From Hyphomonadaceae bacterium (lineage in GTDB: Bacteria > Pseudomonadota > Alphaproteobacteria > Caulobacterales > Hyphomonadaceae): a DNA stretch of 48,702 nucleotides. The notes under the pieces are model-generated. The model had not been told where the DNA came from, did no database searches, and saw only the letters and a program-made list of their open reading frames with translations. The stretch lies in NCBI GenBank assembly GCA_030158285.1, contig JAOATF010000116.1, positions 1 through 48,702 on the forward strand, in the 5' to 3' direction. The position numbers were made by a program, and so were the translations under genes. This document shows positions 24,516-34,354 of this stretch, piece by piece. Every line of letters begins with the position of its first letter. Position 1 is the first letter of the stretch.

Positions 24516-24689
24516 CTAGAGCACCGATCGTCCCTGCAGCGCCCTGACCACGAAGGCCACGACCGTCAGCACGAGGAAGACGACAAACAGAAGTTGCGCG
24601 ATCGACGTCGCAGCGCCGGCGATGCCGCCGAAGCCGAGCACGGCCGCCACAAGCGCGAGTACGAGAAAAGTCAGGGCCCATCCAAGCAT
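24516..24689 (-). CDS. DUF1328 small membrane protein (YtjA-like)
   Basis: A 57-residue protein with two hydrophobic helices joined by a short Gly/Ala turn ([15 protein letters not shown]) and a basic C-terminus (RALQGRSVL). Small size, two helices and the FGGIAGAA turn match the DUF1328 family, small inner-membrane proteins often induced by general stress. The ATG at 24689 has GGGAG upstream. An exact EcfG-type promoter sits 36 bases before the start codon, so stress control is strongly suggested. The molecular function is unknown. Confidence 0.88.
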
Positions 24690-24724: not shown

Positions 24725-24749
24725 AACGTGCCCGCGCGTCTCCGGTTCC
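24725..24749 (-). promoter_or_regulatory. EcfG-type promoter for the DUF1328 gene
   Basis: Read on the minus strand: GGAAC at 24749-24745, 16-base spacer, CGTT at 24728-24725. This is an exact match to the alphaproteobacterial EcfG consensus, with a predicted start about seven bases past the -10 and a leader of about 30 bases. Confidence 0.85.
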
Positions 24750-24832
24750 GCCCATTCACCCTGTGACGCGCACATCATGAAGCGCCACGCAGAGCGCGAC
24801 AGACCCACACAGCATCAACGCACCATCGCGAT

Positions 24833-24858
24833 GGAACTTCCCGTCACACGATCGCGTT
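24833..24858 (+). promoter_or_regulatory. EcfG-type promoter for the entericidin-like gene
   Basis: GGAAC at 24833-24837, 17-base spacer, CGTT at 24855-24858. It lies 47 bases before the ATG of the entericidin-like gene and is divergent from the DUF1328 promoter. Confidence 0.85.
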
Positions 24859-24905
24859 TCCACATCTGATCGGCGGCTGTCGCCGACGGGACATGGAGAT
24901 TCACG

Positions 24906-25040
24906 ATGAAGACCGCTTTCGCCGCCCTCGTGCTGATGCTCGCCACGGCCGCTGCCGGCTGCAACACCGTCGAAGGTGTGGGCGAAGATATGACGGCTGC
25001 CGGTCAGGCCGTCGATGACGCTGCCGAAAAGGCCCAATAG
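24906..25040 (+). CDS. Entericidin-family small lipoprotein
   Basis: A 44-residue lipoprotein: signal peptide with lipobox AAAGC, then CNTVEGVGEDMTAAGQAV, the signature of entericidin A/B-like proteins. Enteric entericidins form an antidote/toxin pair under the stress sigma factor. Single-copy relatives in alphaproteobacteria are stress-induced envelope lipoproteins of unproven role. GGAG lies eight bases before the ATG. An EcfG-type promoter precedes it and a strong terminator follows, so it is a monocistronic stress gene. Confidence 0.9.
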   Translation: MKTAFAALVLMLATAAAGCNTVEGVGEDMTAAGQAVDDAAEKAQ

Positions 25041-25053
25041 CATGATGCGATGT

Positions 25054-25083
25054 GCGCCCGGACCTCGTCCGGGCGCGCCTTTC
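25054..25083 (+). terminator. Intrinsic terminator after the entericidin-like gene
   Basis: 25054-25063 pairs perfectly with 25067-25076 (10 GC-rich pairs, CTC loop), followed by GCCTTTCG. Confidence 0.8.
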
Positions 25084-25164
25084 GCTTCGCGTTAGAGGCG
25101 ATGCCTCAGCGGCGCCCTATGTGCATGTCGCGTTAAGGTCCGGCGTCCAGCCAGTGCAGTAACC

Positions 25165-25677
25165 ATGTTTGCTAACTCGAAACTCGTTTGCGGAGCAGGG
25201 CTGGCCATCGTCGCCGGCTCTTTTGCGTTCATCCCGTCAGTGCTGGCCCAGACCAGGCCAGCCGAGACGACGCCCGCCGCCGTCACGTCGGCAACGTGCC
25301 CCTCCGGTCTTCTCTCCGTTTACTATGCGCGTGGCGAAGCCACGCCCTCCGAAGAAACTGTCTCCCTCATTGGCCGCATCGGCGCAGAAGCGACCGCCTG
25401 CCAGCCCGATGGCATCGATCTCGTGACGCAGATCGACAACAGCGGCGAGGCAGACGCCGTCCCGCTCGCGCTCGCGCGCCTCGGCAATGTGGCCTCCGAA
25501 CTGATCGCCTCCGGCGTTCCGGCTGACCGCATCCGCCTGGTTGCCCGCCCGAGTGGCGCCTCCACCTCGCCGATGGGCGAGGTCAGCGTCATCTTCCGCA
25601 AGCAGGTCTCAGGTCCCGACGATGCCGCCGCCCCGGCGCGTCCCGCCCAGCCGCAGACCCAGTCTGACCGAATCTGA
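25165..25677 (+). CDS. Exported protein with a degenerate OmpA-like C-terminal fold
   Basis: A 170-residue protein with a Sec signal peptide (ending SVLAQT). Residues about 45-145 follow the OmpA-like pattern: an opening strand (LLSVYYARGEA), an EETVSLIGRIGAEA helix, a strand with DLVTQIDNSGEA, then an LALARLGNVASELIASGVPADRIRLVA helix-strand pair. The peptidoglycan-contact signature (GHTD...N..LS..RA) is largely lost, so wall binding is doubtful. The C-terminal tail is Ala/Pro/Gln-rich and probably disordered. It lies between the entericidin-like gene and the convergent phyR; no EcfG motif was found upstream. Function unknown. Confidence 0.7.
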   Translation: MFANSKLVCGAGLAIVAGSFAFIPSVLAQTRPAETTPAAVTSATCPSGLLSVYYARGEATPSEETVSLIGRIGAEATACQPDGIDLVTQIDNSGEADAVPLALARLGNVASELIASGVPADRIRLVARPSGASTSPMGEVSVIFRKQVSGPDDAAAPARPAQPQTQSDRI

Positions 25678-25712
25678 AGTTCGGCCTGATCTGAAACACC
25701 AAACCTGAAGCC

Positions 25713-25750
25713 AAAAAAGTTTCGGCCCGGCAGGTGTCCCCGCCGGGCCG
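25713..25750 (-). terminator. Intrinsic terminator of phyR (possibly bidirectional)
   Basis: 25742-25750 pairs with 25723-25731 (9 GC pairs). On the minus strand the stem is followed by AAAC and six T residues (A-run 25713-25718 on the + strand), which terminates phyR. The hairpin may also serve the convergent OmpA-like gene. Confidence 0.75.
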
Positions 25751-25773
25751 CATGTTCTTTCGATTTAGCCAGA

Positions 25774-26556
25774 TCAGGCCGCGACCGGCTTCTCTTCGTG
25801 GAAGAACAGCGCCTGACCGATCGCCGCTTTCACCGTCTCCGGCTGGAAGGGCTTGGTGATCATGAAGGCCGGCTCCGGCTTGTCGCCCGTCAGCAGGCGC
25901 TCCGGGAAGGCGGTGATGAAGATCACCGGCACGTCCATGCCGCGCAGGATGTCGTTCACCGCATCGATGCCGGATGAGCCATCGGCCAGCTGAATGTCCG
26001 CCAGCACGAGCCCCGGCCGCGCCGCCTTCACGGCTTTCACCGCCTCCGTGCGCGTCGTGGCAACCGTGGTCACGCGGTGCCCAAGGTCATGCACCAGCGC
26101 CTCGATATCGGCGGCGATCACCGGCTCGTCCTCGATGATCAGAACGTCCGTCGCCAGCACGTTCTCGATGTCGGATTGCGCGCGGGAGATCAGGTCGCGC
26201 AGGGCCTCCGGTCGCTCGCCCAGGATCTGGGCGGCCTCTTCCGGAGAAAAGCCTTCCAGCGCCGTCAGCAGAAAGGCCTGCCGGTGGCGGGGCGGAATGC
26301 GCAGCACGCGCTCGCTGATCGTGGTTGCGCTCTCGGGGACGGTTTCCAGCTGGGCGCCGGTTGCGCCCCAGATAGCATGGAAAAGCCGGTACAGCGCCAC
26401 GCGTGGGGGCAGGTCGTCCAGCTCGTGCGTGCCCGAAGCCAGGGCCTGCAGGGCGGCTTTCACGTAGGAATCGCCGCTTTTCTGGGTCCCCGTCAGGGCC
26501 CGGGCATACCGGCGAAGAAATGGCAAATGGGGTCCAAGCTTTTGAACCAGGCTCAT
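25774..26556 (-). CDS. phyR: PhyR, anti-anti-sigma response regulator of the general stress response
   Basis: A 260-residue regulator. The N-terminal ~125 residues imitate an ECF sigma factor (sigma2-like helices, then RHRQAFLLTALEGFSPEEAAQILG as the sigma4-like part). The C-terminal receiver has the acidic pair IEDEP (residues 141-145), phospho-acceptor Asp187 in LVLADIQLADG, and FITAFPERLLTG, the switch region characteristic of PhyR. In the known pathway, phosphorylated PhyR binds NepR and frees EcfG. GGGAGATTCT precedes the ATG. An exact EcfG promoter lies upstream, back to back with the nepR promoter, so phyR is probably auto-activated through EcfG. Confidence 0.96.
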   Translation of the reverse strand: MSLVQKLGPHLPFLRRYARALTGTQKSGDSYVKAALQALASGTHELDDLPPRVALYRLFHAIWGATGAQLETVPESATTISERVLRIPPRHRQAFLLTALEGFSPEEAAQILGERPEALRDLISRAQSDIENVLATDVLIIEDEPVIAADIEALVHDLGHRVTTVATTRTEAVKAVKAARPGLVLADIQLADGSSGIDAVNDILRGMDVPVIFITAFPERLLTGDKPEPAFMITKPFQPETVKAAIGQALFFHEEKPVAA

Positions 26557-26600
26557 AGAATCTCCCGCACGTCGCTAATCACAGTCTCTCCGAAGGGGTA

Positions 26601-26625
26601 AACGTCATACGCCCGGCCGGGTTCC
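26601..26625 (-). promoter_or_regulatory. EcfG-type promoter for phyR
   Basis: On the minus strand: GGAAC at 26625-26621, 16-base spacer, CGTT at 26604-26601, about 45 bases before the phyR start codon. Confidence 0.88.
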
Positions 26626-26645
26626 ATGGATCTTTCGGATTTTGT

Positions 26646-26670
26646 GGAACCACATGTTCCATAGCACGTT
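26646..26670 (+). promoter_or_regulatory. EcfG-type promoter for nepR-ecfG
   Basis: GGAAC at 26646-26650, 16-base spacer, CGTT at 26667-26670. The -35 elements of this promoter and of the phyR promoter face each other 20 bases apart, so the polymerases would occupy adjoining DNA. Confidence 0.88.
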
Positions 26671-26723
26671 ATGGACCTGTCGCGGGGCTGACCCGCTCAC
26701 AACGGATGAGGCTGAAAAGCCAT

Positions 26724-26978
26724 ATGGGCAAAGACATGACCGGGGACGATTCGGGCTCGAGGCCACCTGTGGACCCCCGAACCGCACGCCGCCGCCAGGA
26801 CCCGATAGGGCGCCGGCTGCGTCAGATGTACGACGACGTCGTGAGCGAAGATGTTCCCGACGATTTTCTGGACTTTCTCGAGCAGGCTGACGAACGCATG
26901 GCCGGGGAAGCAAACGGGCAGGAGCCAGAGGCCAAGACGCTGGAAGCAGAGACTTCGCCTTCCGGATCCAAACCCTGA
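26724..26978 (+). CDS. nepR: NepR-type anti-sigma factor
   Basis: An 84-residue protein whose core DPIGRRLRQMYDDVVSEDVP followed by DDFLDFLEQAD is the NepR signature: two amphipathic helices that clamp EcfG. The flanks are charged and probably disordered, as in the family. GAGG lies 11 bases before the ATG at 26724; the upstream in-frame ATG at 26706 has no ribosome site but cannot be excluded. It is the first gene of the nepR-ecfG-kinase unit, with 14 bases to ecfG. It is recognised by PhyR when that is phosphorylated. Confidence 0.9.
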   Translation: MGKDMTGDDSGSRPPVDPRTARRRQDPIGRRLRQMYDDVVSEDVPDDFLDFLEQADERMAGEANGQEPEAKTLEAETSPSGSKP

Positions 26979-26992
26979 CAAGCGGCGGTAAA

Positions 26993-27676
26993 ATGGTTGA
27001 TTCCAGCGACATCCATAAGGTGACGCAACGGCAGCGCCATGCCGGCGGCGGAGAGGATGATACGTCATCCGCCTCAGCCGCCAACGAAGCGACTTTCCGT
27101 GCAGAGCTCGTCGGCCTGATCCCGCATCTGCGCGCCTTTGCTCGCAGTCTCTGCAAGGATCCGACAGCCGCCGATGACCTGGCTCAGGAAGCGCTGGCCA
27201 AGGCCTGGAAAGCGCGTGAATCGTTCGAGCCAGGCACCAGCCTCAAGGCCTGGACCTTCATGATCCTGCGCAACCAGTTCTATTCCGAAAAGCGCCGCAG
27301 CTGGCGCTCAGCGCCCCTCGATACCGAAGTGGCCGAGAACACGCTTCTGGCCGCTGACAACCCAACCGCCCCCATGGAGCTGCTGGAGCTGCGCGCCGCG
27401 CTCAACAAGCTGCCGGCAGACCAGCGCGATGCGCTGATCCTCGTCGGCGCCGGCGGAATGGCTTATGAGGAAGCCGCGCAGGTCTGCCAGGTCGCCGTCG
27501 GCACGATAAAGAGCCGCGTCAGCCGGGCTCGCAAGGCGCTGGAAGTCATGCTGAACGAGACGGGATCGAGAAATCCCGCGGAGCACGAAATTGGGGCCGG
27601 CAATGCGTTTGACGATATTCTGCAGCAGGCCTCTACCCTCGCTGAGGGCGGAGTGAGGTCGAGGGGTGACAACTGA
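26993..27676 (+). CDS. ecfG: EcfG-family RNA polymerase sigma factor
   Basis: A 227-residue ECF sigma factor of the alphaproteobacterial general stress type. Region 2 is at about residues 45-110 (LCKDPTAADDLAQEALAKAW and SLKAWTFMILRNQFYSEKRR) and region 4 at about 140-195 (LPADQRDALILVGAGGMAYE and VGTIKSRVSRARKALE). It is expected to direct transcription from GGAAC-N16/17-CGTT promoters, several of which lie in this window, including its own. The first 30 residues and the last 35 are not conserved. It overlaps the kinase gene by 11 bases, which suggests translational coupling. Confidence 0.95.
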   Translation: MVDSSDIHKVTQRQRHAGGGEDDTSSASAANEATFRAELVGLIPHLRAFARSLCKDPTAADDLAQEALAKAWKARESFEPGTSLKAWTFMILRNQFYSEKRRSWRSAPLDTEVAENTLLAADNPTAPMELLELRAALNKLPADQRDALILVGAGGMAYEEAAQVCQVAVGTIKSRVSRARKALEVMLNETGSRNPAEHEIGAGNAFDDILQQASTLAEGGVRSRGDN

Positions 27677-29393
27677 GGATCTGCCGCGGCGCCGTTTATC
27701 GCTCCGCGTCCTGCTCCTCCTGATCTTCGCAGCGGCGCTCTCGCCGGTGCTGGTGATCGGGGGGATACGCTGGTCGGGAGATGTCGAACGGGACGCCCAG
27801 TATCGTCGCGAAACCATGACACTGGTTGCGCGCGTTGCGGCCAGCCGTGCCGAAAGCCTGCTGGGGTCCGCGCCCTCCATCCTCAATCTCATCGGGACGG
27901 GCGACACCGGCCAGCCATGCGACCTGCCACTCAAGCAGATCCTCGTCGCGCTGCCTGACTTCGCGAATTTCGGCGTCGTGGGCGCCGATGGCATTGTGAA
28001 GTGCTCGACGCAGGAAGGCGCGCCTGGCACCGACGTGAATGCACGCGAATGGTTCAAGACCGTGCGCGACGGCCCGAAACCCTTCGTGCTCTCCGGCGCG
28101 GTTTTCGGACAGGTCACTCACCAGTGGGTCGTCGCCTCGGCGCTTCGACGCGAAACGGCGACCGGCGCGTTCGATGGCGCGTATGCGCTGGGCCTCCCGG
28201 TCAATGCGCTGGTGTCTCAGCTCGAACACAGCGACTTGCCTCGCAATTATGAAGTGTCGCTTGTTGATGCTTCCGGCCGCGTGTTTGCCAGCTCCTTCTG
28301 GGAAATGTTCGACGGCGCCACGATGGCGAAGGTCGATCCCGAGAATGGCGGCTTCGTCCAGCTCAATTCGAACCAGGGCGAGAGTCGCCAGGCAGCGGTC
28401 ATCCCGCTCGCCGGGCACGAATTCTACGCCATGGTCTCGGCCCCGACGCCGCCGCCGATCGCGCTGGAAAACGTGGCTGCTTTCGGCAATTTCGCGCTGC
28501 CGCTGATGGCGTGGCTGCTGGCGCTGGTTACGGCCTGGCTCGCGATGGACCGGCTGGTGCTGCGTTGGCTCGACTACCTGCGCCGCATCGCCGGCCTTTA
28601 TGCCAGCGGCAAGCTCTCGGTTCAGCCCCTGCGCGCCCGGCGTCAGGCCCCGGGAGAGATCAACGAACTCGCCGATACGCTCGAGGAAATGGCCGTCCGC
28701 ATCCGTGATCGCACGGGCCGCATGGAAACCGCGCTGGCCACACGCGATGCCGCGATGAAGGAAATCCACCATCGGGTGAAGAACAACCTGCAGATCATCA
28801 ACAGCCTGCTGAGCCTGCAGGGCCGCAAGCTCAACGATCCGGCCGCCATCTCCGTGCTCGATGACGCGCGCGCGCGCATCAATGCGCTGTCGCTGATTCA
28901 CTCATCGCTCTACGAAAACAACAACATCCGCGCGGTGGAGTCGAAAAGCTTCTTCACCCAGCTGGCGGGCAATCTCGCTAATGCCGTGGGTGCGGAAGAC
29001 CGCGGGTTCAGGATCACGGCCAGCATCGACGATGAAACCATCGACGCCGACATCGCCGTGCCGCTGGCGTTGTTCACCGCCGAAGCCGTCACCAATGCCG
29101 CCAAACACGCTTTTGCTGACTTTACGCCCGGCAGCAGCGGCCTGATCGAGATCATCTACAAGATCGATCCCGACGCGACCGTTCTCACCATCCGGGACAA
29201 TGGCGCTCCCTATGCGGGCGCTGTGGGCGCAGCCTCCAGTGTCGGCGCAACGCTGATGGCGGCCTTTGCGAAGCAGGCGAGGGGAAAGATGGAAGAGGAT
29301 GTGGCGCCGACCGGGAGGCGTTCCGTCCGCATCCGCATCCTGGCGGCCGACCGGGTCCCCTATGTCGAGTCAGATGTAATCGTACACTACTAG
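27666..29393 (+). CDS. HisKA_2-family sensor histidine kinase, probable PhyR kinase
   Basis: A 575-residue membrane kinase. One helix at about residues 12-34, an extracytoplasmic CACHE-like domain (about 35-270, with a motif region NAREWFKTVRDG), a second helix at about 275-298, a HAMP-like linker, then the phosphoacceptor His369 in EIHHRVKNNLQ and an ATPase domain with AEAVTNAAKHAF (N box) and IRDNGAPY (G1). This HisKA_2 layout is typical of PhyK-like kinases that phosphorylate PhyR. The start is GTG at 27666, overlapping ecfG by 11 bases with a GAGG-rich ribosome site. Position in the nepR-ecfG unit supports the role. The signal sensed is unknown. Confidence 0.92.
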   Translation: MTTEDLPRRRLSLRVLLLLIFAAALSPVLVIGGIRWSGDVERDAQYRRETMTLVARVAASRAESLLGSAPSILNLIGTGDTGQPCDLPLKQILVALPDFANFGVVGADGIVKCSTQEGAPGTDVNAREWFKTVRDGPKPFVLSGAVFGQVTHQWVVASALRRETATGAFDGAYALGLPVNALVSQLEHSDLPRNYEVSLVDASGRVFASSFWEMFDGATMAKVDPENGGFVQLNSNQGESRQAAVIPLAGHEFYAMVSAPTPPPIALENVAAFGNFALPLMAWLLALVTAWLAMDRLVLRWLDYLRRIAGLYASGKLSVQPLRARRQAPGEINELADTLEEMAVRIRDRTGRMETALATRDAAMKEIHHRVKNNLQIINSLLSLQGRKLNDPAAISVLDDARARINALSLIHSSLYENNNIRAVESKSFFTQLAGNLANAVGAEDRGFRITASIDDETIDADIAVPLALFTAEAVTNAAKHAFADFTPGSSGLIEIIYKIDPDATVLTIRDNGAPYAGAVGAASSVGATLMAAFAKQARGKMEEDVAPTGRRSVRIRILAADRVPYVESDVIVHY

Positions 29394-29397
29394 CTGG

Positions 29398-29544
29398 TCA
29401 GGTCACCGGAACCATGGCCACCGCCGCGGCGACGGCCAGACCGGTCGCGATCGCCAGGCAGGCAATCAGCGCAAACAGGCTCCCCTTCCGGGAAACTTCC
29501 CGGTCGATGTCCTCCATCAGCTGGCGTTCTTCAGGGTCGTGCAT
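29398..29544 (-). CDS. 48-residue single-helix membrane protein, stress-promoter controlled
   Basis: A short protein: an acidic/charged N-terminus (HDPEERQLMEDIDREVSRK) followed by one hydrophobic helix of about 25 residues to the C-terminus. No family recognised. The ATG at 29544 is chosen because an EcfG-type promoter lies 32 bases upstream; the frame stays open further upstream but crosses the promoter. No strong ribosome site is seen. It is convergent with the kinase gene with 4 bases between stops. Confidence 0.65.
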   Translation of the reverse strand: MHDPEERQLMEDIDREVSRKGSLFALIACLAIATGLAVAAAVAMVPVT

Positions 29545-29575
29545 GGTACTCACGTTCTGTGGTGTCTGAAATCGG

Positions 29576-29600
29576 AACGCCAAGGCATTCCCCCGGTTCC
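29576..29600 (-). promoter_or_regulatory. EcfG-type promoter for the 48-residue membrane protein gene
   Basis: On the minus strand: GGAAC at 29600-29596, 16-base spacer, CGTT at 29579-29576. The predicted leader is about 25 bases. Confidence 0.8.
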
Positions 29601-29663
29601 AACTCCAGATGCGAAGAGAGCGCCGCTTTACGCAGCGCTCCCTCCCCATTTTGGGCTTCTATA

Positions 29664-30020
29664 CTAACCGCGATACTCGCCATTGGCCCAGTAAGACCGC
29701 CCGCTGCGGCGATCGACGTAATAATACCGCCGGGCATAGTTATCATACAGCAGCGGCTCGCCGTTCGGCCCAACATCAGCCCGGCTGTTATTGTTGTTCC
29801 GGTCGGAACTCGCGCCAGCAACACCACCAGCAATAGCACCACTGGCAGCACCAATAGCAGCCCCCTGCCCAGCATCCCCCGAACCAGTGTTGTTACCGAT
29901 GATGGCGCCGGCGGCGCCACCAAGGAGGGCGCCGGTGAGGGCGCCGCGTTCTGTGTTGCCAGTTGAGGTACAAGCTGTGGTGGCGCCGAGGGCGGCGAGG
30001 GCGAAGAGGGTGGTTTTCAT
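29664..30020 (-). CDS. Glycine-zipper lipoprotein
   Basis: A 118-residue lipoprotein: signal peptide with lipobox TTAC, then a glycine-zipper region (ALTGALLGGAAGAIIGNNTG and AAIGAASGAIAGGVAGA) like that of 17-kDa surface antigen / YMGG-type outer-membrane lipoproteins, then a polar Asn/Arg-rich stretch and a Tyr/Arg-rich tail (YARRYYYVDRRSGRSYW). It probably inserts in or spans a membrane. It starts 29 bases after the preceding gene on the same strand, with AGGAGA before the ATG, so the two form an operon under the EcfG-type promoter at 30523. Confidence 0.8.
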   Translation of the reverse strand: MKTTLFALAALGATTACTSTGNTERGALTGALLGGAAGAIIGNNTGSGDAGQGAAIGAASGAIAGGVAGASSDRNNNNSRADVGPNGEPLLYDNYARRYYYVDRRSGRSYWANGEYRG

Positions 30021-30049
30021 GGGGGTCTCCTTGAATGTGGCGGTTGCGA

Positions 30050-30484
30050 CTAGCGCAGCGGCCGTTTGATGGCGCCGGCGCCGCCGCCGATGATCAGGCC
30101 CGCGACCGTGGTCTGGGCGATCAGCGCCAGCGACGCCGTTGCAACGGCAGCCGTCGCGACCAGGCCGACACCCGCGCCCAGCACGGAGCCGAGCACCATG
30201 CCGGACATCACCGGCGCATCCTGCTTGCGCTGGATCGCCAGTTGCGGCGGTTGCATGTCCTTGAGTTGAACAAGCGCGCGCGAGACTTCACGCAGGTCGG
30301 TTTCTTCACCGCCCGTCATGTTCTCCGCGGTGCTGTCAGCCAGCTGCTGGGCATCCAGCTTCCAGCTTTCAAGAATGCGCACCTTGTCGGTGTGCGAAAG
30401 TTCATTGTCCTTCACGACTTCGTCCGGATGGTCGAAGTGTCGCTTCGGATGGAAAACCAGTTCGTCTACTGCATGCGTGCTCAT
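30050..30484 (-). CDS. Stress-promoter controlled protein with soluble N-terminus and Gly/Ala-rich membrane C-terminus
   Basis: A 144-residue protein. Residues 1-90 are charged and helical (VDELVFHPKRHFDHPDEVVK, then a helix with DKVRILESWKLDAQQLAD), and residues about 95-140 form two hydrophobic Gly/Ala/Val segments (VLGSVLGAGVGLVATAAVA and QTTVAGLIIGGGAGAI). Proteins of this shape recur in alphaproteobacterial stress regulons, but I cannot name a function. The ATG at 30484 is chosen for GGAAGGCGGA upstream. An EcfG-type promoter lies 39 bases before the start. It is the first gene of a two-gene unit with the glycine-zipper lipoprotein. Confidence 0.75.
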   Translation of the reverse strand: MSTHAVDELVFHPKRHFDHPDEVVKDNELSHTDKVRILESWKLDAQQLADSTAENMTGGEETDLREVSRALVQLKDMQPPQLAIQRKQDAPVMSGMVLGSVLGAGVGLVATAAVATASLALIAQTTVAGLIIGGGAGAIKRPLR

Positions 30485-30522
30485 GGCGGATCCGCCTTCC
30501 TCGCTCTGAGTGGTCAACCCAG

Positions 30523-30548
30523 AACGAGGCAGGCAGGTCCGCGGTTCC
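30523..30548 (-). promoter_or_regulatory. EcfG-type promoter for the 30484 gene and glycine-zipper lipoprotein
   Basis: On the minus strand: GGAAC at 30548-30544, 17-base spacer, CGTT at 30526-30523. Confidence 0.82.
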
Positions 30549-33220: not shown

Positions 33221-34354
33221 TTAGTACCCGCCGATCCTTGCGTAGCGGTCGCGGTGGAAGCTTTCGCCGCCGTAGAGGTTTTCGAGGACGCGGGCGCGTT
33301 TCATGTAGAGGCCCGAGTCGTGGGCGTCGGTCATGCCGATGCCGCCGTGCATCTGGACCGTCTCGTTGGAGACGAGGTGCAGGGTTTCGGCGGCGCGGGC
33401 CTTGGCGAGGGAGGCCAGTTCGGAAACGTCGTTGGCGTTGCGATCGAGCGCATCGAGCGCGGCGATCACGCAGCTGCGCGTCAGTTCGAGTTCGGTGAAC
33501 ATGATGGCGGCGCGGTGCTGGATCGACTGGAACGAGCCGATCAGCTGGCCGAACTGCTTGCGCACTTTCAGGTATTCGCTGGTCATCTCGAAGGCGGCAT
33601 CCGACGCGCCGAGCATTTCCGCCGAGAGGCCGATGCGGGCGCGGTCGAGAATCTGTTCGAGCGCGGCATAGCCGCCATCGACCGTGCCGAGCACGGCGTC
33701 AGCGCCGACTTCGGCGCCAACGAAGGTGATGTTCGCGGCAGCGTGGGCATCGAGCGTTTTCAGGTTGGTGCGCGTGACGCCTTTTGCATTGGCGGGCACG
33801 AGGAAGAGGGTGATGCCGGTGGCGTCGCCCGCATCGCCCGAGGTGCGCGCGGCGACGATCAGCAGGTCGGCATCGCCGCCATCGACGACGTAGCGCTTGT
33901 CGCCATTGAGCACGAAGCCGGCGCCGGATTTCTTCGCGCCGAGTTTGACGTGGGCGGGATCGTGGTGCGGGCCTTCATCGACGGCCAGCGCGGTGAGGCA
34001 TTCGCCGGCGGCGATCTTCGGGAGCCACGCCTGTTTCTGTGCCTGGTTGCCAGCGATGAGCAGGGCTGAGGCGCCGACGAGGGCGGTGGAGAGGAGCGGG
34101 GTGGCGCCGATGGTGCGGCCCTGCGCTTCGAGCACCTGGCCGAGGCCGACATAGCCGAAGCCCGAGCCGCCGAATTCTTCCGGGATGATGACGCCGGTGA
34201 AGCCGAGATCGACCATTTCCTTCCAGGCGGCCTTGTCGAAGCCGGCGCCGGCGGTGCGCAGGGTGCGCAGCTGGGCGACGGGGAGCTTTTCGGCCGCGAA
34301 GGTCATCGCGCTGTCGCGCAGCATCTGCTGCTCTTCATTGAGCACGAACGCCAT
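33221..34354 (-). CDS. Acyl-CoA dehydrogenase family protein (short, FadE-like)
   Basis: A 377-residue flavoprotein of the acyl-CoA dehydrogenase superfamily. It has the N-terminal helix domain (LNEEQQMLRDSAMTFAAE), a beta domain with DLLIVAARTSG, a C-terminal RKQFGQLIGSFQSIQHRAA flavin-contact motif and a terminal VQMHGGIGMTDAHD. This divergent group is often annotated as the small partner in alpha2beta2 steroid or alkanoate dehydrogenases, so it may work with another acyl-CoA dehydrogenase (that at 39254 is in the same window but not adjacent). AAAGGAG precedes the ATG. The DsbA-type isomerase gene lies 35 bases upstream on the same strand. Confidence 0.88.
   Translation of the reverse strand: MAFVLNEEQQMLRDSAMTFAAEKLPVAQLRTLRTAGAGFDKAAWKEMVDLGFTGVIIPEEFGGSGFGYVGLGQVLEAQGRTIGATPLLSTALVGASALLIAGNQAQKQAWLPKIAAGECLTALAVDEGPHHDPAHVKLGAKKSGAGFVLNGDKRYVVDGGDADLLIVAARTSGDAGDATGITLFLVPANAKGVTRTNLKTLDAHAAANITFVGAEVGADAVLGTVDGGYAALEQILDRARIGLSAEMLGASDAAFEMTSEYLKVRKQFGQLIGSFQSIQHRAAIMFTELELTRSCVIAALDALDRNANDVSELASLAKARAAETLHLVSNETVQMHGGIGMTDAHDSGLYMKRARVLENLYGGESFHRDRYARIGGY

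What the first reader, a model, noticed from the sequence alone, without database searches (positions are those of the whole stretch)
24725..30548. Six exact EcfG-type promoters clustered around the phyR-nepR-ecfG locus
Six sites match GGAAC-N16/17-CGTT exactly at 24725, 24833, 26601, 26646, 29576 and 30523, each within 32 to 54 bases of a start codon and correctly oriented. An exact nine-base match at fixed spacing should be rare by chance. The island therefore carries the sigma factor, its regulators and at least four small membrane/lipoprotein targets together, a compact self-contained stress module rather than a scattered regulon.
Basis: partly seen in the sequence, partly recalled or inferred. 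Interest (0 to 1): 0.7.

Follow-up and report, generated by a model that had tools for sequence, protein, structure and literature searches.

The report
Stress-sigma promoters clustered at their regulator
A cluster of switch sequences for a bacterial stress-response regulator sits around that regulator's own genes and in front of several small cell-envelope genes; the cluster is real and conserved in relatives, but it is one dense part of a regulon that also seems to have targets elsewhere in the genome.

Summary
Six exact GGAAC-N16/17-CGTT sites lie at the stated places, intergenic, 31-47 nt before start codons. Density is about 100 times that of the rest of the genome (6 in 5.8 kb; 44 in the other 4.19 Mb). 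In 80 related named phyR loci there are 524 sites against 18 expected from wrong spacings. These are almost certainly EcfG promoters of the alphaproteobacterial general stress response. Five of the six recur at matching places in the genus; the one before a 48-aa gene does not.

"Self-contained rather than scattered" fails: of the 44 other sites 18 lie 10-120 nt before a predicted start, against 5 of 59 wrong-spacing controls, several before stress-type genes. It is a dense core of a scattered regulon.

Beyond the finding: in 105 same-family genomes PhyR and DUF1328 go together (72 both, 31 neither, 2 discordant), mostly within 6 kb; outside the family the link is weaker. Two 99% complete congeners lack PhyR, NepR, EcfG and DUF1328. 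The kind is known; this is a new member.

The parts
24516..24689 (-). 57-aa DUF1328 small membrane protein (PF07043)
   Evidence: Pfam E 7e-16; site 35 nt upstream
24725..24749 (-). EcfG-type promoter, N16, for the DUF1328 gene
   Evidence: same place in 9 of 10 genus loci that hold the gene, read off; upstream of 32 of 34 DUF1328 genes found in 80 named loci, wrong-spacing control 0
24833..24858 (+). EcfG-type promoter, N17, for the entericidin gene
   Evidence: 10 of 10 genus loci that hold the gene; 56 of 65 in named loci, control 1
24906..25040 (+). 44-aa entericidin-family lipoprotein (PF08085)
   Evidence: Pfam E 1.8e-5, 25 bits over cut-off 23.3
25165..25677 (+). 170-aa protein with no family above a curated cut-off and no EcfG site of its own; bystander or read-through gene
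   Evidence: weak matches only; relatives in genus loci
25774..26556 (-). PhyR: sigma-like domain plus receiver, anti-anti-sigma factor
   Evidence: PF22029, PF22233, PF00072; NF006623 E 1e-106
26601..26625 (-). EcfG-type promoter, N16, for phyR
   Evidence: 10 of 11 genus loci; 70 of 80 named loci, control 8 of 80
26646..26670 (+). EcfG-type promoter, N16, for nepR-ecfG-phyK
   Evidence: 11 of 11 genus loci; 72 of 77 named loci with NepR, control 2
26706..26978 (+). NepR anti-sigma factor
   Evidence: PF18557 E 1.8e-14
26993..27676 (+). EcfG-type ECF sigma factor
   Evidence: Sigma70_r2 and r4_2; ECF superfamily model TIGR02937 above cut-off; lies between nepR and phyK
27666..29393 (+). PhyK-like HisKA_2 sensor kinase with dCache domain; start overlaps the ecfG stop, so probably the same operon
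   Evidence: PF07568 E 1e-23, PF02743; NF051872 PhyK E 3e-125 but below its cut-off
29398..29544 (-). 48-aa protein with one hydrophobic stretch (by eye), no family
29576..29600 (-). EcfG-type promoter, N16, before the 48-aa gene; the one site without a counterpart before that gene in relatives
   Evidence: absent in the 2 genus loci (L192, L193) where the 48-aa gene was recognised
29664..30020 (-). Glycine-zipper lipoprotein; 29 nt behind the 144-aa gene, probably read from its promoter
   Evidence: PF13488 E 9e-9; no exact site and no one-mismatch site keeping AAC before it here, though 6 of 7 genus loci and 29 of 30 named loci have one
30050..30484 (-). 144-aa predicted membrane protein, no family; among fetched loci seen only in the genus
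   Evidence: 7 of 11 genus loci, the other 4 being contigs of at most 5.3 kb; 0 of 80 named and 0 of 9 same-family loci
30523..30548 (-). EcfG-type promoter, N17, for the 144-aa gene (and glycine-zipper gene)
   Evidence: 7 of 7 genus loci that hold the gene

Best explanation
[quoted passage not shown] Stress makes PhyK (and probably other HisKA_2 kinases) phosphorylate PhyR; phosphorylated PhyR binds NepR through its sigma-like domain; EcfG is released and directs RNA polymerase to GGAAC-N16/17-CGTT. Two back-to-back promoters between phyR and nepR make the switch self-amplifying, the kinase gene riding in a nepR-ecfG-phyK operon. Four further promoters drive small envelope proteins (DUF1328, entericidin, a 48-aa protein, a 144-aa protein plus the glycine-zipper lipoprotein behind it). 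The locus is the densest part of a regulon that also has perhaps 10-20 exact-consensus promoters elsewhere in this genome. Shown here: gene families, sites, spacing, conservation, scattered sites in promoter position. Inferred from the family: the phosphorelay and partner switch, EcfG dependence of each transcript, operon structure.
For:: six sites, correct strand, 31-47 nt from starts. PhyR, NepR, ECF sigma, PhyK-like kinase; 524 sites in 80 named loci against 18.2 per spacing pair in controls; 504 of the 524 lie from 4 kb before to 8 kb after the phyR start; over 100 loci 503 hits at N16, 153 at N17 and 3-18 at each other spacing from 8 to 27; five of six sites at matching places in the genus; 18 of 44 other sites in promoter position against 5 of 59 controls (P 2e-4); their genes include Transgly_assoc, glycine-zipper, DUF4142, an AI-2E transporter, a response regulator. 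(PMC3073932, section 8 read): in Caulobacter crescentus phyR (CC_3477) and the entericidin B homologue CC_3473 are SigT-dependent under carbon starvation and carry the SigT motif, as does a Transglycosylase-associated protein (CC_1682). (PMC8103513, passages): both core units have GSR promoters.
Against: No RNA data from this organism. Over the whole genome the motif is at background (50 against 49), so the scattered part rests on position relative to starts from a home-made gene caller; about 4 of the 18 are expected by chance, and L119 looks like a truncated hybrid-kinase gene with the site inside its frame (by eye). The 48-aa gene's site is not conserved before that gene. The sigma factor passes only the ECF superfamily model of the 25 NCBIfam rows shown (of 88), and NepR and PhyK are below their NCBIfam cut-offs. 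In the Caulobacter table neither phyR nor CC_3473 was SigT-dependent under osmotic stress.
Confidence: 0.92

Rival explanations
1. Compact self-contained module: all or nearly all EcfG targets of this organism are in this island.
For: Genome-wide count equals background (50 against 49) while the island is about 100-fold dense.
Against: 18 of 44 other exact sites in promoter position against 5 of 59 controls; several of their genes belong to GSR-type families; ten GSR-bearing genomes of the genus carry about 18 excess sites each on average against 4-10 in the fetched loci (some loci are short contigs).
Confidence: 0.05
2. The sites are chance matches in GC-rich intergenic DNA.
For: The motif is only nine fixed bases and is at background over the genome.
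Against: 0 of 100 shuffles reach six; spacing spectrum peaks only at 16-17; 524 against 18 in related loci; conserved positions with divergent spacers.
Confidence: 0.01
3. The island as a whole came into this genus by horizontal transfer from Caulobacteraceae.
For: PhyR is closer to Caulobacteraceae loci (median 68%) than to nine loci of other genera of its family (63%); two same-genus genomes lack PhyR, NepR and EcfG.
Against: The PhyR+EcfG tree (quick, 55 rows chosen by hand) puts the genus in a clade of its own (SH-aLRT 100) and Caulobacteraceae in a separate one (99), their order unresolved; EcfG and PhyK identity to the two groups is about equal.
Confidence: 0.05

Closest known systems
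Caulobacter crescentus sigT-nepR-phyR locus with its HK4/PhyK kinase (PMC3073932: section 8 read, other passages seen; PMC8103513: passages)
   Same: phyR beside nepR-sigma with a kinase gene at the locus (CC_3474 to CC_3477, figure legend); an entericidin homologue next in gene number (CC_3473) that is SigT-dependent under starvation and carries the motif; other targets scattered by gene number. One passage of that paper labels PhyR CC_3473, against its own table and legend.
   Different: Here DUF1328 and entericidin form a divergent pair on the phyR side, and further small envelope genes with EcfG sites lie behind the kinase gene.
Sphingopyxis granuli and Sphingomonas melonis EcfG regulons (PMC7083833: section 8 read and passages; PMC6599016: passages)
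   Same: Sphingopyxis consensus GGAAC-N16-CGTT with such a promoter before nepR2-ecfG1; envelope proteins and ecnAB among its targets.
   Different: 79 transcriptional units reported in Sphingopyxis, ecnAB (SGRAN_1922) far in gene number from ecfG (SGRAN_1161/1163); two EcfG paralogues there, while here the next-best sigma factors are only 34-38% identical. The S. melonis motif is given as GGAAC-N17-20-GTT.
RpoS/sigma-S regulon of Salmonella (PMC5437024: passages)
   Same: A DUF1328 protein (YtjA) and ecnB are listed among small genes tightly controlled by the general stress sigma factor.
   Different: Unrelated sigma factor and promoter; the passages seen do not present them as neighbours of the sigma gene.

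Membership tests
Alphaproteobacterial GSR core locus (PhyR-NepR-EcfG) | PhyR with N-terminal sigma-like domain and C-terminal receiver | tested here: met
   PF22029, PF22233, PF00072; NF006623 356 bits over cut-off 240
Alphaproteobacterial GSR core locus (PhyR-NepR-EcfG) | NepR upstream of the sigma gene | tested here: met
   PF18557 53.5 bits over cut-off 25.7; NCBIfam NepR 61.6 bits, below its cut-off 100
Alphaproteobacterial GSR core locus (PhyR-NepR-EcfG) | ECF sigma factor of the ECF15/EcfG group | tested here: inconclusive
   Sigma70 r2/r4 domains, ECF superfamily TIGR02937 above cut-off and locus order fit; no ECF15 model was available
Alphaproteobacterial GSR core locus (PhyR-NepR-EcfG) | Divergent phyR and nepR-ecfG units, both with EcfG-type promoters | tested here: met
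Alphaproteobacterial GSR core locus (PhyR-NepR-EcfG) | HWE/HisKA_2 kinase at the locus | tested here: met
   PF07568 83.5 bits over 22.3
Alphaproteobacterial GSR core locus (PhyR-NepR-EcfG) | Partner switch: phosphorylated PhyR sequesters NepR and frees EcfG | not testable with these tools
   needs biochemistry
EcfG promoter | GGAAC and CGTT boxes at 16-17 nt, kept while the spacer varies | tested here: met
EcfG promoter | EcfG-dependent transcription start | not testable with these tools
   needs RNA; experimental parallel for phyR and an entericidin gene in Caulobacter

The most novel reading that the evidence does not exclude
In this family the GSR locus is a core island in which the stress switch and a small set of envelope genes are kept, and lost, together. 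DUF1328 is a near-obligate companion of PhyR: of 105 same-family genomes 72 have both, 31 neither, one each is discordant, and in 67 of the 72 they lie within 6 kb. That would make this little-studied small membrane protein a core effector or modulator of the GSR rather than one target among many. Limit: in 80 named loci, mostly Caulobacteraceae, DUF1328 was found near PhyR in only 34, so the rule may hold for this family alone.
Probability: 0.45. Interest if true: 0.5.

Novelty: new member of a known kind. Interest (0 to 1): 0.33.

Why it matters
The locus itself is expected biology. What is useful is that motif clustering round phyR is strong and conserved enough to find the switch's closest partners without RNA data, and that it singles out DUF1328 (and entericidin) as genes that stay with the switch. 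Members of both families are also listed as controlled by the unrelated stress sigma factor RpoS in Salmonella (PMC5437024, passages), so two bacterial classes may have put the same small envelope proteins under their general stress response. Genomes without the switch give a natural control.

Tried and rejected
Reversed-pattern control: the tool's built-in control (53 against 50 in this genome; 20 against 524 in the named loci) was set aside for genome counts because the box and its reversal differ in CpG; wrong-spacing controls were used instead.

Horizontal transfer of the island from Caulobacteraceae: suggested by PhyR identity, not supported by the PhyR+EcfG tree. The tree is a quick one; 17 of 52 inner branches are drawn open, and 28 of the 71 Caulobacteraceae-like loci were used, chosen by hand.

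Paralogy between the 170-aa gene (25165-25677) and the scattered gene L123: 24% over 83 columns, E 0.001, too weak to claim. Glycine-zipper gene and L115: 37% over 90 columns, partly low-complexity.

One-mismatch sites in the window that keep AAC, are intergenic and lie within 150 nt of a start: none.

Literature: the searches listed no paper that I could see to state clustering of EcfG targets round phyR or a DUF1328-PhyR association; I saw listings, and passages or one section of six papers, in an open-licence library, so this does not show that it is not in print. SMc00796 (DUF1328 of Sinorhizobium) as an RpoE2 target could not be confirmed.

Full report
Observation. One search finds exactly six exact GGAAC-N16/17-CGTT matches in the window, at the six coordinates given; 100 dinucleotide shuffles give a mean of 0.52 and a maximum of 3. 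All six are intergenic by a codon-usage gene caller, and the gap from CGTT to the start codon is 35, 47, 44, 35, 31 and 38 nt.

Genes. Pfam and NCBIfam give DUF1328 (24516-24689, -), entericidin (24906-25040, +), PhyR (25774-26556, -), NepR (26706-26978, +), an ECF sigma factor (26993-27676, +), a PhyK-like HisKA_2 kinase with a dCache domain (27666-29393, +), a 48-aa protein (29398-29544, -), a glycine-zipper lipoprotein (29664-30020, -) and a 144-aa protein without family (30050-30484, -). NepR and PhyK fall below NCBIfam's cut-offs while NepR is well above Pfam's; of the 25 NCBIfam rows shown for the sigma factor (of 88) only the ECF superfamily model is above its cut-off. The name EcfG therefore rests on domains plus locus order.

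Enrichment. The whole genome (4,191,483 bases in 271 contigs, 90.36% complete) holds 50 matches, six of them here. The density is about 100-fold that of the rest; Poisson P is about 7e-11 without correction for the number of possible windows. But over the whole genome the motif is not enriched: twelve wrong spacings (10-15 and 18-23) predict 49 for a pair of spacings.

Are the other 44 sites promoters? I took all 44 and, as controls, 60 wrong-spacing matches (spacings 13, 14, 19, 20; 30 of 51 and 30 of 43 matches). With one gene caller for both, 29 of 44 real and 15 of 60 control sites are intergenic, and 18 of 44 against 6 of 60 lie 10-120 nt before a start. Two controls are one palindromic place, so I count 5 of 59; Fisher P is 2e-4. 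About four of the 18 are expected by chance, and one (L119) looks by eye like a truncated hybrid-kinase gene with the site inside its frame. The downstream genes include a Transglycosylase-associated protein (L015), glycine-zipper proteins (L016, L115), DUF4142 (L007), an AI-2E family transporter (L002), a response regulator (L019), a transglutaminase-like protein (L023) and a PAS hybrid kinase (L118); others have no family. The regulon of this genome is thus probably scattered as well as clustered. Exact matching and the incomplete assembly make this a lower bound.

Natural control. Fifteen genomes of the genus were searched, this one included. Two, each 99% complete (G088, G092), have no PhyR at E 1e-40, no NepR, no EcfG at E 1e-15 and no DUF1328; a third (G098, 77% complete) also shows none but may be incomplete. 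Over ten genomes with the GSR and at least 85% completeness, 730 sites are seen against 545 expected from wrong spacings (excess 1 to 39 each); over the two without, 80 against 82 (Fisher P 0.012). This genome itself has the smallest excess (50 against 49), which I put down to noise of about 7. In G088 and G092 the SDR gene that borders the island here is present (82% identity), beside an acyl-CoA dehydrogenase that by eye resembles the one at 33221-34354. In G088 the next 6 kb hold none of the island proteins (tblastn; the only other match in the stretch is a 30% entericidin-like one at E 0.02 on the other side of SDR). The G092 contig ends about 0.35 kb behind SDR.

Conservation. In 80 named PhyR loci with up to 10 kb on each side (Caulobacteraceae mainly by title; 80 of 527 relatives were kept), there are 524 exact sites in 1.45 Mb; wrong spacings give 109 over twelve spacings, 18.2 per pair; every locus holds at least two. 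504 of the 524 lie from 4 kb before to 8 kb after the phyR start. Exact sites within 130 nt upstream (in brackets the number with any of twelve wrong spacings): phyR 70 of 80 (8), nepR 72 of 77 found (2), entericidin 56 of 65 (1), DUF1328 32 of 34 (0), glycine-zipper 29 of 30 (0), the 170-aa gene 0 of 6 (0); the 48-aa and 144-aa genes were found in none. Over 100 loci the spacing spectrum is 503 at N16, 153 at N17 and 3-18 at each other spacing from 8 to 27. In 11 genus loci (read off the table; four are contigs of at most 5.3 kb) matching sites are present for nepR in 11 of 11, phyR 10 of 11, entericidin 10 of 10 with the gene, DUF1328 9 of 10, 144-aa gene 7 of 7, glycine-zipper 6 of 7, with spacers that differ. 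In nine loci of other genera of the family the DUF1328 gene has such a site in 8 of 9.

Against my reading: the site before the 48-aa gene has no counterpart before that gene in the two relatives where it is recognised (L192, L193). In L192, and before a similar small gene in L191, a site instead lies just behind it, in front of a lipid-kinase-like gene (DAGK_cat), which is followed by a metallophosphoesterase gene and a second DUF1328 gene (Pfam run on L191). In the window the kinase and 48-aa genes end 5 nt apart, so that block is absent there, and the genome has one DUF1328 gene.

DUF1328 and PhyR. In 105 same-family genomes, PhyR at E below 1e-80 occurs in 73 and DUF1328 in 73; 72 have both, 31 neither, one PhyR only (G002), one DUF1328 only (G059). 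The cut-off was set after seeing a gap between 1e-84 and 1e-59; seven genomes have only weaker PhyR-like hits and count as without. In 67 of 72 the two lie on one contig within 6 kb; in five they are on different contigs. Of 104 DUF1328 copies 76 lie within 10 kb of PhyR and 28 do not. Relatedness inflates the Fisher P (3e-24), but genomes with both and genomes with neither occur side by side in four genera (g1, g3, g4, g5). Outside the family the link is weaker: 34 of 80 named loci, and DUF1328 occurs in E. coli and Methanosarcina among the control genomes.

Mechanism. The partner switch and the autoregulation of phyR and nepR-ecfG are taken from the literature (PMC8103513, passages). Here the start of phyK overlaps the stop of ecfG, so the kinase should share the loop. 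The glycine-zipper gene has no site of its own here and follows the 144-aa gene by 29 nt, so it is probably read from that promoter. In Caulobacter, Table 1 of PMC3073932 (section 8) lists the entericidin B homologue CC_3473 and phyR (CC_3477) as SigT-dependent under carbon starvation with the motif, though not under osmotic stress; the kinase, sigT, nepR and phyR are CC_3474 to CC_3477 (figure legend). This is experimental precedent for a clustered target.

Known or new. The locus is an ordinary GSR core with new sequence. Clustering of further targets round it is conserved and, in the searches named under Tried and rejected, I saw no paper that describes it as such. The DUF1328-PhyR link is the most interesting part and is correlative.

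Noticed in passing
G088 and G092 (same genus; L213, L214): Two 99% complete congeners show no PhyR, NepR, EcfG or DUF1328; the bordering SDR gene and an acyl-CoA dehydrogenase gene remain.
   Followed up: partly
L191:13502-15359 and L192:4705-6598: In relatives a lipid-kinase-like gene (DAGK_cat), a metallophosphoesterase and a second DUF1328 gene, with EcfG sites, lie between the kinase gene and the 48-aa gene; the window lacks this block.
   Followed up: partly
window 30050-30484: 144-aa membrane protein without any family; among the fetched loci found only in this genus, at this locus.
   Followed up: no
window 25165-25677: 170-aa protein kept beside the entericidin gene in the genus at only 39-47% identity, with no EcfG site; fast-evolving.
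   Followed up: no
L118 and L019 in the window's genome: Two scattered EcfG-type sites stand 39 and 27 nt before a PAS hybrid histidine kinase and a receiver-domain gene, perhaps extra signalling arms of the stress response.
   Followed up: no
G059: The only same-family genome with DUF1328 but no PhyR hit at E 1e-40 (93% complete); true exception or assembly gap not decided.
   Followed up: no
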